From: Gemmatimonadota bacterium | GTDB lineage: Bacteria; Gemmatimonadota; Gemmatimonadetes; Gemmatimonadales; GWC2-71-9 | Assembly: GCA_016209985.1 (NCBI GenBank) | Contig: JACQVB010000156.1 | Span: 1-57,909, forward strand | Direction of reading: 5' to 3' | Length of the DNA stretch: 57,909 nt | Shown: positions 5,016 through 18,014 of the stretch, in pieces | Position numbering within the stretch: the first letter of the stretch is position 1 | Layout: every line of letters begins with the position of its first letter | The notes under the pieces: generated by a model | The model's database searches: none | What the model was told of the DNA's origin: nothing | Seen by the model: the letters and a program-made list of their open reading frames with translations, nothing else | Translations under genes and position numbers: made by a program

Positions 5016-5267
5016 TCAATCACGGTCGACATGTTCCAGTGGTACCCCGCGACCGAGTCGTAGGTCGGCTCTGGCCTCGGCGACTCGCCGAAGAAATTCG
5101 AGATCATTTTCCATGCGGTACTCGAACCAATCGTCGTCAGAATGGAACCCGATCAATACGCCCGCGGGCCGACCGTGGCGCGTGATCACGATCTCCTCGT
5201 CGGCGGCGAGGCGGAGATAACGCGAGAGGTCATCCTTTACTTCCGCCAGCGGTACCCTCTTCGCCAC
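5016..5267 (-). CDS. Phd/YefM-type antitoxin (second gene of a RelE-type pair)
   Basis: From a GTG at 5267 the frame reads VAKRVPLAEVKDDLSRYLRL, then EEIVITRHGRPAGVLIGF, the Phd/YefM fold, and an acidic helix (DWFEYRMENDLEFLRRVAEA). A GGGAG ribosome site lies about 10 nt before the GTG. The gene overlaps the end of the upstream toxin gene by 38 nt, giving toxin-first order, as in higBA-like or reversed relBE loci. Confidence 0.85.
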   Translation of the reverse strand: MAKRVPLAEVKDDLSRYLRLAADEEIVITRHGRPAGVLIGFHSDDDWFEYRMENDLEFLRRVAEARADLRLGRGVPLEHVDRD

Positions 5268-12753: not shown

Positions 12754-13069
12754 GCGACCGGTTGTGCTTGCCAGGTGCCCGATGCCTTGGAAGCAGGTGG
12801 ACGTGATGACCGAACGAATGGTGAGGGGAGTGTCATCACCGGAATCGCGCGCTCAAGCACGCCCTTCGACTTCGCTCAGGGCGGGCTGTTCGGCGTGAAT
12901 GCCCTGAAAAGTTGAACCGGCTCGGCCACACTCCACTGCCGCCGAGTACCGCTTCGAAGTCGTGTCAGCACCCTTTAGGACCTTTGACTCGCCGGCGTCA
13001 CGCTTCGGCGGCGCTTGAGCTTGCCTGATCCCGGCTCCTCGGTCCTTCCAACTGTCAGAGCTTGCGCGG
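12754..13069. other. Stretch without a recognised gene
   Basis: About 315 bp holding the inverted CCCTTCGACTTCGCTCAGGG element (12862-12881) and no frame with convincing composition. It ends at the first copy of the dispersed 5' repeat. Confidence 0.5.
12862..12881. repeat. Inverted CCCTGAGCGAAG-type element
   Basis: CCCTTCGACTTCGCTCAGGG, the reverse orientation of the interspersed element seen at 12583-12602 and 3330-3363. Confidence 0.6.
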
Positions 13070-13182
13070 AACGACGGTGACGGCGGCGCGCCGGCTAACG
13101 GACGGTCTCGAAGACCTAGGCTGCACGGACTATCGCCCGCCACAATCTGCTCACATTTTACGGGAGAATCGATATACAAGGC
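13070..13182 (+). repeat. Dispersed 5' repeat, copy 1
   Basis: Copy of a ~115-bp sequence shared with 14944-15059 and 17771-17884. Landmarks in order: AACGACGG, CCGGCTAACGGACG, the small hairpin GGTCTCGAAGACC, CGGACTATCGCCCGCCACAA, TCTGCTCACATTTTACGGGA and GAATCGATATACAAGGC. It ends about 50 nt before the gene starting at 13231. Confidence 0.85.
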
Positions 13183-13230
13183 CGCAACGCTGTCCCAAGA
13201 GGAATCGGAGAGCACCACATCGTGAGGCTC

Positions 13231-13716
13231 ATGCGACCCACCTTGCTTGCAGCCTGCTTCTGCATGGGCGGCCCGCTAACGGCATCCGCCCAGGTGCTGG
13301 ATATCGGCGGCATTCAGCTCCGCCTCGGACAGGATGTCTCGGAGGCGTTAAAGTCACTCTCCCCCTACCAGGTGCAGTATGAGGATCAGAGCGAGGCCTG
13401 GTTAGTTACAGGGAAAGTGGGTAACAGATTTGAGTATCTCGGGAGCCTCACAGCTACTGATGGCAAGGTTGCTAGTATTTCCAAGAGTTATAGGATCTCC
13501 GAAGACCACGATGATAGGACCGCCTACAGTCACGCCTCCAAGGACGTGCGTCGCCTTGGTGGCTCCAACTGCACGATGCGAGAGGTCGAGTTTACGGACG
13601 ATCTGATCCATCAAATCGAGACCAGCTGTGGTCAGTATCGACTCGTCTACGTCTTCCCCTGGCTGTACAAAGGCGACAAAGTGAGCGCATCGTTATCGCT
13701 CAGCGTGGGTGGCTAA
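13231..13716 (+). CDS. Exported protein of unknown function
   Basis: About 161 residues with a signal peptide (MRPTLLAACFCMGG, LTASAQ cleavage region). The mature part begins VLDIGGIQLRLGQDVSEALK, which resembles the first lines of small secreted proteins where a short beta hairpin precedes a helix, and has two cysteines (SNCTM and TSCGQY) that could pair. A GTG 9 nt upstream is an alternative start. No family recognised. It is the first of three genes that follow copies of the dispersed 5' repeat. Confidence 0.7.
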   Translation: MRPTLLAACFCMGGPLTASAQVLDIGGIQLRLGQDVSEALKSLSPYQVQYEDQSEAWLVTGKVGNRFEYLGSLTATDGKVASISKSYRISEDHDDRTAYSHASKDVRRLGGSNCTMREVEFTDDLIHQIETSCGQYRLVYVFPWLYKGDKVSASLSLSVGG

Positions 13717-13802
13717 CTGATCTACCAGCGACCACCGCGGACCTTGCGCTTGGCCGTGAGTCGGTCGCTGCCCAGCGTAGTCCGCTAGGCCGCGGGCAGG
13801 CC

Positions 13803-14447
13803 ATGACAATCGCCCCTTGCACGTATTGTGGTCGCAAGGAGAAGCCGACCTCTGACCACGTCCCACCGAAGGCTGCATTCCCAAAGCCCAGGACGAGCGA
13901 CTTGATTACCGTCCCCAGCTGCGAGCCTTGTAATAAGTCCTTCGAGCTGGACGACGACTACTTCAAGCAACACTTAGCATTACGTCGGGACATCGAGGCG
14001 CATCCTCGCGCCGCCACTCTTCTGGCCGAGGTGCGCCGCTCCTGGGCTCGCCCCGAAGGCGGTGGTTTGAAGGCCTACACGGTTGGCACTTTGGTTCAGC
14101 GGCCGTCGCCTGCTGCCGCTCTAGAGCTTGGGCAATACATCGACAGCGAGAGGATTGGCACAGTACTCGGGCGTACCGTCCGGGGCCTCTATTTTCACCA
14201 CACCGGTCGCCGTATTCCGCCCAGCTATCGCGCTCGGGCAATTCTGTCTGAGGCCGCAACGCCGGACTTTCAGCTGGCGTTCGAGTGTGCGCTGTTTAGT
14301 TCTCCAGATTACGCCCTCGCTGAGGGGATGTTCGCGTACTCGTTTGCCGCAGCGAGCGATGATCCAATGAGTACCGTGTGGCTGCTGCAGTTCTACGGTA
14401 ACGCGCTCTTCTATGCGATGACCGGCGCACCCAAGGTTGCGGCCTAA
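13803..14447 (+). CDS. HNH-type zinc-ribbon protein
   Basis: A 214-residue protein whose first 45 residues hold an HNH/zinc-ribbon pattern: CTYCGRKEKPTSDHVPPKAA, then VPSCEPCNKSFELDDDYFK. The two CxxC pairs would bind zinc and the DHVPPKA/CNKS segments correspond to the HNH active-site strands. The remaining helical part (VLGRTVRGLYFHHTGRRIP) occurs in stand-alone HNH proteins of unknown substrate. It has no dispersed repeat in front and only a weak ribosome site, so it may be co-transcribed with the preceding gene. Confidence 0.75.
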   Translation: MTIAPCTYCGRKEKPTSDHVPPKAAFPKPRTSDLITVPSCEPCNKSFELDDDYFKQHLALRRDIEAHPRAATLLAEVRRSWARPEGGGLKAYTVGTLVQRPSPAAALELGQYIDSERIGTVLGRTVRGLYFHHTGRRIPPSYRARAILSEAATPDFQLAFECALFSSPDYALAEGMFAYSFAAASDDPMSTVWLLQFYGNALFYAMTGAPKVAA

Positions 14448-14804
14448 CACCACCATTAAGAAGTGCGTGGCCAAGGGGTCGTAATAATCCTCTTTAGGCG
14501 CGTGACCAAGCTCCCGCGGCGAGGAACGTTCGCCACGCTTTCCGATGTACCGAACGTCTTCGTTTCTTCCAACCTTCCAGCGGCGTCTGCCGGTCGGATC
14601 CCTGTGAACGTCACCCGCGGTGGCGTCCAGACACCATTAATGGGCTCAACGACTACAGCGGTTCCGCGCCAGCCGCCTTCTCTCACTGGACGATCCCAGA
14701 TCCTTCGTTGGCACAACGCCGGGCATCCCAATCAAGCGCGTGATCCCCGATGCGGCTTCGGTTGCTGGTCAAGCGAGTGCGATCAGCGCTCCCGCATCGC
14801 GCGC
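14448..14804. other. Stretch with a decayed, unidentified coding remnant
   Basis: About 350 bp. The plus strand reads TLSDVPNVFVSSNLPAASAG and VNVTRGGVQTP in one frame and, after a shift near 14635, NGLNDYSGSAPAAFSHWT in another. This looks like the remains of a secreted or structural protein, but I cannot name a family. Confidence 0.4.
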
Positions 14805-15059
14805 TAATTGAATCGCGGGGCTGAAGCCCGCGCTCGGCGTGCCCTGAAGGGCTGAACGTGTCGAGCAGCGCTTCAGCGCGGTGCCGACCCGGGGCCTCTC
14901 AGGTCGTGTCATGCGAGCCCTTCAAACTGCCCGAGTTGAGGATGAACGACGGTGATGGGCGACGCCCCGGCTAACGGACGGTCTCGAAGACCTCAGGCGG
15001 CACGGACTATCGCCCGCCACAATCTGCTCACATTTTACGGGAGAATCGACATACAAGGC
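14805..15059 (+). repeat. Dispersed 5' repeat, long copy 2
   Basis: About 255 bp shared with 17637-17884. It begins with AATTGAATCGCGGG and a GGCTGAAGCCCGCG hairpin, continues through GCCCTGAAGGGCTGAA and CGAGCAGCGCTTCAGCGCGG, and ends in the core TATCGCCCGCCACAATCTGC...ATACAAGGC. It stops ~57 nt before the beta-lactamase-like gene. Confidence 0.85.
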
Positions 15060-15116
15060 TGTGCCCCATGTAGCATCCTCCGCGTGCTACTCCGTTCCCT
15101 GCAAAGAGGTGACCCC

Positions 15117-16127
15117 ATGTCCTGTCGAACCGCTTTGCTCATTGCAATGCTTCTCCCAACAGGACCGCTTCTAGCCCAACGACCACCCAATGGCGGAACA
15201 AGCGCGGACCTCGTCCGATTGGAGCGAGCAATCGAGAACATTGCCGGCTCTGCCGCAGGGCGGGTCGGCGTTTCCGTCGTTCATCTCGAGTCCGGTCGCA
15301 GCGCATTCCTGAATGCTACCGAAGCCTTTCCGATGGCAAGTTCCTACAAGGTTGCTATCGCCATTGCGCTCTTGACTCGCGTCGATCGTCGCGAGCTTCG
15401 CCTTGACTCGTTGGTGGTCATTGACTCGACCGACCTGCACCCTGGAAGCGGGACCGTCTCGGACTTGCTTGCTCAGCCCGGCGTCGCCCTGTCGCTGCGG
15501 AATCTCCTTGAGCTCATGATGCTCATCAGCGATAATAGCGCTACCGATGTAGTCCTGCGTGTGGTCGGCGGACCTGATGCCGTCAACGCGCGCCTTCGTG
15601 AGCTCGGAATTCAGGGCATGAACATTTCCCGACCCACCATCCGTTTGGTGTCCGACTACTGGGGGGTAAGAGAAACGATTACGCCCGCAAGTCGATTTCT
15701 GACAGTGAGAAATGCTCTCTCCCGACGCTCACAGGATTCGGCACACGCTGCATTCCAAATCGATCCCCGGGATACCACAACGCCTCAGGCCATGGCATCT
15801 CTCATCTCCAAGATTTGGCGCCGCGAAGCCATCAGTCCGCCCAGTACCGATCTGCTAATTGACATCATGCGACGTTGCAGGACGGGCACGAACCGTCTCA
15901 GAGGCTTCTTGCCGCCGGGCGTCGATGTCGCCGACAAGACCGGAACAATGGGCGGCGACCGCCCGACAAATGTCAACGACGTTGGTGTATTCACCCTGCC
16001 GGACAATGGCGGACACGTGGTGGTTGCGGCCTACATCAAGGCTGCAACACCGTTGGCAGCAGAAAGCGAAAGGGTGATTGCGAATATTGGTCGAGCCGTC
16101 TATGACTACTTCTTGTTCAACCCCTGA
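15117..16127 (+). CDS. Class A beta-lactamase-like serine hydrolase, exported
   Basis: A 336-residue protein with a signal peptide (ALLIAMLLPTGPLLAQ). Class A active-site motifs are present: S75-S-Y-K78 (nucleophile and Lys), S138-D-N140 and K274-T-G276. The segment that should hold the omega-loop glutamate reads ISRPTIRLVSDYWG and has no clear EPELN equivalent, so deacylation may be impaired or use another residue. An insertion around 185-225 makes it longer than typical (~290). ATG 15117 has AGAGGTGA just upstream. The substrate could be beta-lactams or a peptidoglycan-related ester; lactamase activity is inferred, not shown. Confidence 0.85.
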   Translation: MSCRTALLIAMLLPTGPLLAQRPPNGGTSADLVRLERAIENIAGSAAGRVGVSVVHLESGRSAFLNATEAFPMASSYKVAIAIALLTRVDRRELRLDSLVVIDSTDLHPGSGTVSDLLAQPGVALSLRNLLELMMLISDNSATDVVLRVVGGPDAVNARLRELGIQGMNISRPTIRLVSDYWGVRETITPASRFLTVRNALSRRSQDSAHAAFQIDPRDTTTPQAMASLISKIWRREAISPPSTDLLIDIMRRCRTGTNRLRGFLPPGVDVADKTGTMGGDRPTNVNDVGVFTLPDNGGHVVVAAYIKAATPLAAESERVIANIGRAVYDYFLFNP

Positions 16128-16231
16128 GGAACTTCACCACGGTGAACACTTCAGATGATAGGTGACACTTTGTTATCAGCTGACTGGTAACACCGCTTCA
16201 ATGGTCGCCAGCTCGCCTGCCTTGTGGAGCC
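16128..16231. mobile_element. Short IS481-end-like remnant
   Basis: The bases GATAGGTGACACTTTGTTAT and CTGGTAACACC resemble the GGTAACAC-rich ends of IS481-family elements, as seen more clearly at 17321-17358. No transposase is attached. Confidence 0.35.
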
Positions 16232-16287
16232 TGGACTGTCGCCCGCCCCAATCTGATTGCAGCTTAGAGGAGAAGCGATATGCAAGG
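16232..16287 (+). repeat. Dispersed 5' repeat, diverged copy 3
   Basis: TGGACTGTCGCCCGCCCCAA, TCTGATTGCAGC, AGAGGAGAAGCGATATGCAA, GGC. Only the 3' half of the repeat is present and it differs at several bases, but the order of blocks is the same. It lies ~80 nt before the alpha/beta hydrolase gene. Confidence 0.7.
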
Positions 16288-16369
16288 CGGCAACGCGCCT
16301 GGGCATTTGCCATCATTCGGCCAGACCCCGAATGATCGTTGGACCACCATCCTTGGGGAGACTCTCACG

Positions 16370-17284
16370 ATGCGCCGCGCTCGCTGCCTTCCCCTCCTCG
16401 CCCTCGTCACCATTACTGTGTCATCCAGCGCGGTAGCCCAGTCCACCCTCTTCGATCCCGTGACCGCGGATCCACCCAGGGACTCCGTATACCCACCCGC
16501 GATGCGTAGTCTCGCCATTTCGAGTGATGGCGCTCGGCTGAACGGCATCATGTATGTTGCCAACGGACCGGGACCACACCCAACCGTGCTTCTCTTGCAC
16601 GGCGACCCCGGAAACGAGCGCGATCTGGACATCGCGCAAGCCGTGCGGCGGGCCGGTATCAATGTGTTGTTCTTCAACTACCGCGGGAGCTGGGGTAGCG
16701 GCGGGCTGTTCACTTTCAGCCATGTCTTGGGGGACGTCGCCGCCGCCCTAGGCTTCGTCCGTGGTCCGGAGGCCCAGCGCAGTTATCGCAGTGATCCCCG
16801 ACGGGTCGCGCTGGTGGGCCACAGCATGGGTGGCTGGGCGGCTCTCATGGCTGCGGCGAGCGATCCCGAAGTTGCGTGCGTTGGCGCGCTGGACTTTGTG
16901 AATGCGGGCGCAGTCGGGCAGCGCCTAAAAGGTGGACCTAACGCTGATTCGCTCTACTCGGTCGAACTTGCCGAGTACCAAGGGAAGACGCAGCCTGGAG
17001 CTCCCTATCGGGCAGAAAGTCCGCGGGCCATCGTGGACGAGTACCGGAACAACCCCGAGCGATTTGACGTAAACCGCTTCGCGCTCTCGTTGAGTACGCG
17101 TCCCCTACTGTTAATCAGTGCAGCCTTCCCTCAATACCAGCGCAGCCTGGCGGACGAATTCGGTAAGCTGCCCGACGTTCGGCTCACCTCCTTCGCATGG
17201 CGGACGGATCATTCCTTTTCCGATCGTCGGATTGAGCTGGCGCGCACTGTTATCTCATGGCTCAAGACCGACTGCAGATTCTAA
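16370..17284 (+). CDS. Exported alpha/beta hydrolase
   Basis: About 304 residues: signal peptide (LALVTITVSSSAVAQ), oxyanion region VLLLHGDPGNERDLD, FFNYRGSWGSGG, and the nucleophile elbow VGHSMGG with Ser152. The catalytic Asp and His probably lie near PLLLISAAFPQ and RTDHSFSD; the latter carries a well placed His. The fold matches dienelactone-hydrolase/prolyl-oligopeptidase-like esterases. ATG 16370 follows GGGGAGA by 6-7 nt. An upstream in-frame start at 16280 would place the signal peptide internally and is rejected. Confidence 0.88.
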   Translation: MRRARCLPLLALVTITVSSSAVAQSTLFDPVTADPPRDSVYPPAMRSLAISSDGARLNGIMYVANGPGPHPTVLLLHGDPGNERDLDIAQAVRRAGINVLFFNYRGSWGSGGLFTFSHVLGDVAAALGFVRGPEAQRSYRSDPRRVALVGHSMGGWAALMAAASDPEVACVGALDFVNAGAVGQRLKGGPNADSLYSVELAEYQGKTQPGAPYRAESPRAIVDEYRNNPERFDVNRFALSLSTRPLLLISAAFPQYQRSLADEFGKLPDVRLTSFAWRTDHSFSDRRIELARTVISWLKTDCRF

Positions 17285-17312
17285 CGTTTCCCGGTGAGCT
17301 CTGCAGGTGAGC

Positions 17313-17500
17313 AGCCGGGGACATAGGTAACACAAGTGTCCAGCAACATAGGTAACACTTTCGGTTACCCACGGATGATGTACTCGCGTTCGTCGAGAGT
17401 CGCAATGAGCACAGTGTTGAAGTAGATGGACCAGATGCCGTCGTCGGTCTCCTCGAGGCCGATGTGCTGGTCGACGAGTGCGTTGGCGATGTGGAGCAAT
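17313..17500 (-). mobile_element. IS481-family transposase 3' end and terminal sequence
   Basis: Two direct ACATAGGTAACAC blocks (17321-17333 and 17346-17358) resemble the ends of IS481 elements. Just inside, the minus strand (to 17365) reads QHIGLEETDDGIWSIYF and LIATLDEREYIIRG, which is the characteristic C-terminus of IS481 transposases. The frame remains open to 17655 but that part joins unrelated sequence. Only the last ~60 codons of the transposase survive. Confidence 0.6.
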
Positions 17501-17636
17501 CGCATCGGTAGGACCGTCACCGGGTGAAGGCCAAGCACCACTGCGGGCTTGGCTCCCTTCGCAAGGCGAGTGCGATCACCGGGATCGCGGCCCAGATACT
17601 GTCTCGGCATGCCGCCGGACTTCCCAATCAAGCGCG

Positions 17637-17884
17637 AATTGAATCGCGGGCTCAAGCCCGCGCTCGGCGTGCCCTGAAGGGCTGAATGGGTCGAGCAGCG
17701 CTTCAGCGCGGTGCCGACCGGGCCACTCAGGCCGCGCCATGCGAGCCCTTCAAACTGCCCGAGTTGGAGATGAACGACGGGGATGGGCGACGCCCCGGCT
17801 AACGGACGTCCCGAAGACCCTGGCTGCGCGGACTATCGCCCGCCACAATCTGCTCACATGTTACGGGAGAATCGATATACAACG
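17637..17884 (+). repeat. Dispersed 5' repeat, long copy 4
   Basis: Closely matches 14805-15059 over its whole length, with small differences (for example GGACGTCCCGAAGACC in place of the perfect GGTCTCGAAGACC hairpin). It is followed by a 16-codon frame (MRLTDEQKAHLLNCDG) and then the ADOP permease remnant. Confidence 0.85.
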
Positions 17885-18014
17885 CCGCTGGCCGTACTCG
17901 GTTTACGAGGATTGTCATGCGTCTCACAGACGAGCAAAAAGCTCACCTACTGAACTGTGACGGCTGAGCATCGTCCGAGCAGGTTGACGGCGGACTGGCG
18001 AACGGGGGCAGAGA

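What the first reader, a model, noticed from the sequence alone, without database searches (positions are those of the whole stretch)
13070..17884. Four copies of a dispersed 5' element, three before genes for exported proteins
Three close copies (13070, 14805, 17637) and one diverged copy (16232) share the order CGGACTATCGCCCGCCACAA, TCTGCTCACATTTTACGGGA, GAATCGATATACAAGGC. Each ends 50-130 nt before a start codon or remnant start. Three of the genes behind them encode unrelated products with signal peptides. The element may be a mobile promoter/leader, a regulatory RNA region, or a cassette junction.
Basis: partly seen in the sequence, partly recalled or inferred. Interest (0 to 1): 0.66.

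Follow-up and report, generated by a model that had tools for sequence, protein, structure and literature searches.

The report
Bridge-RNA ends aimed at integron sites
The repeated stretch in front of these genes is the leftover end of a jumping DNA element (an IS110-type insertion sequence) whose own guide RNA matches the joining sites of integron gene cassettes, which would explain why copies sit just before unrelated genes and always face the same way.

Summary
The four copies are real (no chance matches in 100 shuffles), but they are probably not promoters or leaders. They are left ends (LE) of an IS110-type insertion sequence; the opposite strand encodes its bridge RNA. In related Gemmatimonadota the same end lies upstream of a DEDD transposase (PF01548 + PF02371). 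The target-binding loop shows strong covariation. Its two guides spell GCnGC-CT-AACGGAC, the R' core of an integron attC site (GTTAGGC, other strand). One full-length relative sits exactly in a textbook attC: GTTAG|IS|AGGC. Across natural relatives, guides match their own flanks far better than shuffled pairs (242/275 against 103±8; 261/335 against 111±9; 0 of 50,000). The window copies and six more in this genome lack transposase and right end. On contig C186, three follow attC half-sites in a cassette-like array. attC-targeting ISs that I found described are IS1111-type, with the RNA region downstream of the gene; here it is upstream: a new variant of a known kind. 'Before exported genes' is not general: C186 genes include DUF5131 and an antitoxin/toxin pair. 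Whether transposase-less copies are remnants or move in trans is open.

The parts
13021..13182 (-). Copy 1: IS110-type left end with bridge-RNA gene (RNA on the minus strand), no transposase, no right end
   Evidence: homologous to the left ends of full-length ISs in L062, L065, L068
13079..13086 (-). Copy 1: 3' strand of the target-loop closing stem (pairs with 13133-13141)
   Evidence: alignment A3, pair counts
13095..13102 (-). Copy 1: right target guide; plus strand CT-AACGGA
   Evidence: position by motif
13104..13116 (-). Copy 1: apical hairpin of the target loop, GGTCTtcgAGACC
13118..13126 (-). Copy 1: left target guide; plus strand AG-GCTGCAC
13133..13141 (-). Copy 1: 5' strand of the target-loop closing stem
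13174..13178 (-). Copy 1: last bases of the left end (ATACA on plus strand, TGTAT on minus)
   Evidence: boundary set by the full-length ISs
13179..13185 (+). Copy 1: core AG (CT on the minus strand) and flank GCCGC, matching the end of an attC R' site, (GTT)AGGCnGC
   Evidence: compare L068
14919..15059 (-). Copy 2: left end with bridge-RNA gene; core AG at 15056-15057
16233..16288 (-). Copy 3: 56-nt stub of the left end only, target loop lost
17747..17885 (-). Copy 4: left end with bridge-RNA gene; small deletions in the loop, core AG changed to AC (17882-17883)
13222..13716 (+). Gene behind copy 1: 164 aa, signal-peptide-like start, no Pfam match
15117..16127 (+). Gene behind copy 2: serine hydrolase, Beta-lactamase2 (PF13354)
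16371..17284 (+). Gene behind copy 3: alpha/beta hydrolase, signal-peptide-like start
17917..17967 (+). ORF remnant of 16 codons behind copy 4

Best explanation
Each copy is the left end of an IS110-type insertion sequence and carries all or part of a bridge-RNA gene on the strand opposite to the downstream gene. In intact relatives the RNA forms a target-binding loop whose two guides read GCnGC-CT and CT-AACGnn, the R' core of integron attC sites, and a donor guide that matches the element's own right end. The DEDD transposase uses this RNA to insert the IS at GTT-AG-GCnGC, so the left end always faces the start of the next gene cassette (mechanism inferred from IS621 and ISEc21). In this genome the copies have no transposase or right end; truncation of varying extent left left-end stubs in front of cassette-like genes. 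Shown: homology to full-length IS ends, RNA-fold covariation, guide-target and guide-donor matches across relatives, attC insertion in relatives. Inferred: that the RNA is made and used, and that the window genes are decayed cassettes.
For: Same end linked to PF01548+PF02371 transposases in related genomes. Closing stem: 8 of 9 pairs change on both sides; 93.1% of all cells paired against 82.0 shuffled; slid versions 36-54%. Guide-target match 242/275 and 261/335, 0 of 50,000 shuffles. Donor guide against right end 251/342, mean 232.0, 0 of 50,000. L068 inserted inside a complete attC. attC half-sites ahead of three C186 copies; 14 attC-signature hits in the genome against 1 for the reversed control. 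Flank GGCnGC next to nearly all own-genome copies.
Against: No convincing attC is left in the window itself: only a lone GCCTAAC at 14442. No transposase of this family was found in the genome, which is a draft assembly, 95% complete. Five of 14 distinct GTTAG insertions show no clear attC arms. Shuffles ignore relatedness of the elements, so the guide statistics are inflated.
Confidence: 0.87

Rival explanations
1. The transposase-less copies are not dead remnants but live units: left end plus bridge RNA, moved in trans by an IS110 transposase or kept as solo guides.
For: Ten copies yet no transposase fragment of this family in the genome; copies 1, 2 and 4 keep the target loop and guides, with small deletions in 1 and 4; the donor guide inside the RNA gene repeats the right-end sequence CAACTG and could stand in for a right end.
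Against: No right end GTTAGnnACTGTnTTG within one mismatch anywhere in the genome; left limits differ between copies, from about 30 to 180 nt; the core of copy 4 is mutated.
Confidence: 0.2
2. A mobile promoter, 5' leader or regulatory RNA that controls the downstream (exported) genes.
For: Copies always lie close before start codons, in one orientation.
Against: Structure and guides are explained on the opposite strand; no sigma-70-like match in the copies; C186 genes behind copies are not a class of exported proteins; target choice explains position and orientation.
Confidence: 0.05
3. The element is itself an unusual attC recombination site of this integron.
For: Cassette-array setting and attC half-sites nearby.
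Against: The conserved fold is a closing stem with an internal loop and hairpin, not an attC hairpin; full-length copies sit beside a separate attC.
Confidence: 0.03

Closest known systems
IS110-type insertion sequences with bridge RNA / seekRNA (IS621, ISEc21; PMC11208160, PMC11187229)
   Same: DEDD transposase, long noncoding end upstream of tnp, loop with left guide 5' of right guide, core CT, short subterminal repeat (ATACA/TGTAT here; ATA/TAT reported), donor guide matching the ends
   Different: Target is the attC R' core; copies in this genome lack transposase and right end; RNA not shown to be made
IS1111-attC group (ISKpn4, ISPst6, ISPa25; Tetu and Holmes 2008, Post and Hall 2009, as cited in PMC11187229)
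   Same: Guide RNA directs insertion into one end of attC sites of integron cassettes
   Different: IS1111 type has the RNA region downstream of tnp and longer subterminal inverted repeats; here it is upstream with short repeats
Integron cassette arrays without integrase (CALIN)
   Same: C186 has same-strand small genes (antitoxin/toxin, VOC, RibD_C, DUF5131) with attC half-sites between some
   Different: Several junctions carry IS left-end stubs; the window itself shows no clear attC

Membership tests
IS110-type insertion sequence | DEDD transposase with PF01548 and PF02371 | tested here: met
   Met in relatives with the same end; absent beside the window copies and not found in this genome
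IS110-type insertion sequence | Long noncoding region upstream of tnp | tested here: met
IS110-type insertion sequence | Bridge-RNA target loop with covarying stem, left guide 5' of right guide | tested here: met
IS110-type insertion sequence | Guides match own target flanks and own right end | tested here: met
IS110-type insertion sequence | RNA made, bound by the transposase and required for movement; circular intermediate | not testable with these tools
   Needs experiment
IS1111-attC group | Insertion at one end of attC | tested here: met
   L068; further relatives
IS1111-attC group | RNA region downstream of tnp | tested here: not met
   It is upstream
Integron cassette array | attC sites between genes | tested here: inconclusive
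   Half-sites ahead of three copies on C186; none clear in the window
MITE | Both element ends present without transposase, uniform boundaries | tested here: not met
   No right end; left limits vary
attC site | Hairpin of paired R''/R' and L''/L' arms | tested here: not met
   The element's conserved fold is a different one

The most novel reading that the evidence does not exclude
An IS110-type lineage in Gemmatimonadota has evolved, separately from the IS1111-attC group, a bridge RNA aimed at integron attC cores, and its transposase-less left ends with intact guides are still moved in trans and go on reshaping cassette arrays.
Probability: 0.2. Interest if true: 0.7.

Novelty: new variant of a known kind. 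Interest (0 to 1): 0.5.

Why it matters
It would add an IS110-type (upstream-RNA) lineage to the elements that hunt integron attC sites, so that two branches of the family with different RNA layout have reached the same target. It gives dozens of natural guide-target pairs with many different targets, a ready set for learning the pairing rules of bridge RNAs. It also warns that conserved '5-prime elements' before cassette genes can be IS stubs rather than regulators.

Tried and rejected
Rfam at gathering score: nothing. Plasmid collection: nothing. An exact long pattern over GTDB contigs: nothing, too strict. The first fold of a mixed alignment gave only a weak hint that the bottom strand folds better. 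Guide-calling took four rounds: the first two patterns misplaced many guides (already significant on most measures but not used); the third was anchored on loop motifs, and its left-guide length was then widened so that the attC-type loops were read too. The patterns themselves never look at the target, but I had seen some flanks by eye while writing them. A first alignment with C186 copies on the wrong strand was redone. Looked for a MITE with two ends: no right end found. Looked for outward promoters: 2 in the region against 1.4 expected, none in the copies. Considered the element as an attC variant and rejected it because a full-length copy sits beside a separate attC. I did not build an attC covariance model.

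Full report
OBSERVATION. The window holds three close copies and one diverged copy of one element, all on the plus strand. A 26-nt core has three matches against none in 100 shuffles. The copies end about 35-86 nt before start codons. The same element occurs five times on contig C186 and once on C51 of this genome, and in 13 of 394 other genomes sampled from the phylum, often near contig ends.

WHAT IT IS. In several relatives the sequence to the left of the element is, on the other strand, the start of an IS110-family transposase (PF01548 and PF02371 above cut-off). In these full-length elements the order in tnp direction is: left end, structured noncoding region, tnp, short right end. The conserved element of the window is the left end plus noncoding region, read backwards. 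This upstream layout marks the IS110 type as against IS1111 (PMC11187229). Named records show the relatives to be Gemmatimonadota.

THE RNA. Read on the minus strand, the region has a closing stem, an internal loop and an apical hairpin. On 25 sequences (three window copies, two C186 copies, twenty relatives) 93.1% of cells pair against 82.0±1.1 shuffled, 8 of 14 pairs change on both sides, and sliding the partners destroys it. The two sides of the loop read GCnGC-CT and, reverse-complemented, CT-AACGGAC. [quoted passage not shown] PMC11208160) the predicted target is GCnGC-CT-AACGG, which is the attC R' site GTTAGGCnGC on its other strand.

TEST OF THE GUIDES. For 55 relatives with a right end and 67 with a left flank I placed guides by loop motifs and compared them with the flanks. 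Five bases right of the core: 242 of 275 agree, shuffled mean 103±8. Five bases left of the core: 261 of 335, mean 111±9. None of 50,000 shuffles reached either. The left donor guide likewise follows the right end, including the variants CAGCTG, CAGTTG, CGACTG and CGATTG. Relatedness between elements inflates these figures, and some guides are still misread by the patterns, but many different targets are each matched by their own guide: for example GCGTT (L085), GACAC (L087) and CCAAT (L103), and by eye CTGTG (L096).

TARGET. The relatives closest to the window copies insert at GTTAG. L068 is inside a textbook attC. Nine of 14 distinct GTTAG insertions have attC-type paired arms by my reading; five of these nine reach p <= 0.01 in its shuffle test. 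Among the nine elements with both flanks known, joining the flanks restores GTTRRRY in eight (my count). In a tree of 94 transposases the AAC-targeting rows fall in a few clusters, five changes against 11.3 shuffled; one of these rows (L165) is probably not attC.

THIS GENOME. The attC signature TAACAAGCGCTTGAAGCTG has 14 hits with up to three mismatches against one for the reversed control, three of them on C186 upstream of copies. Genes on C186 are of cassette type: antitoxin/ParE, VOC, RibD_C, DUF5131, ABM, DUF2442. A truncated integron-integrase-like N-terminus lies at the edge of C68. No transposase of this family and no right end were found in the genome. The copies are cut back to about 30-180 nt and always keep the end that faces the gene. 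Decay with the gene-side edge preserved explains this simply; movement in trans is not excluded.

WHY BEFORE GENES. The guide fixes site and orientation: the left end faces the first bases of the next cassette, whose gene starts within tens of bases. No function for the gene is needed, and the C186 genes show that export is not a rule.

NOVELTY. Guide-RNA insertion into attC is known for IS1111-type elements (PMC11187229). Searches of the held literature for IS110 with attC or integron turned up no IS110-type attC targeter, but subscription papers are missing and I did not read every listed paper. I therefore call it a new variant of a known kind.

Noticed in passing
L191 (G000:C23, first ~1.9 kb): A second, unrelated IS110-superfamily transposase (start MDNIGLDLHKRE) at a contig edge next to attC-like sequence (CGCTCCGTTAGAC) and a HicB/HicA-like gene pair; possibly an IS1111-type attC element in the same genome.
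   Followed up: partly
L063 (G249:C113), about 2271-2864 in element orientation: A left-end copy interrupts an integron-integrase-like reading frame.
   Followed up: no
L025:2-421 and L026:2544-2972: Two truncated integron-integrase-like N-termini in this genome; no complete intI was seen.
   Followed up: partly
window 16145-16195 and L007 about 5085-5140: Another shared ~52-nt repeat (86.5%), AGGTGACACTTTGTTATC..., upstream of copy 3 and of a C186 copy; perhaps an end of a different IS.
   Followed up: no
window 17318-17365: ACATAGGTAACAC twice in close succession, like the end of another mobile element.
   Followed up: no
window 15117-16127: Exported Beta-lactamase2-family protein with SSYK, SDN and KTG motifs, a class A beta-lactamase-like enzyme; activity unknown.
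   Followed up: partly
window 14560-15059, 17430-17885 and L027 up to 1760: The repeats reach well upstream of the element: C51 and copy 2 share ~480 nt at 81%, with GCGGGCTGAAGCCCGCG-type palindromes, so a larger intergenic unit has been duplicated.
   Followed up: partly
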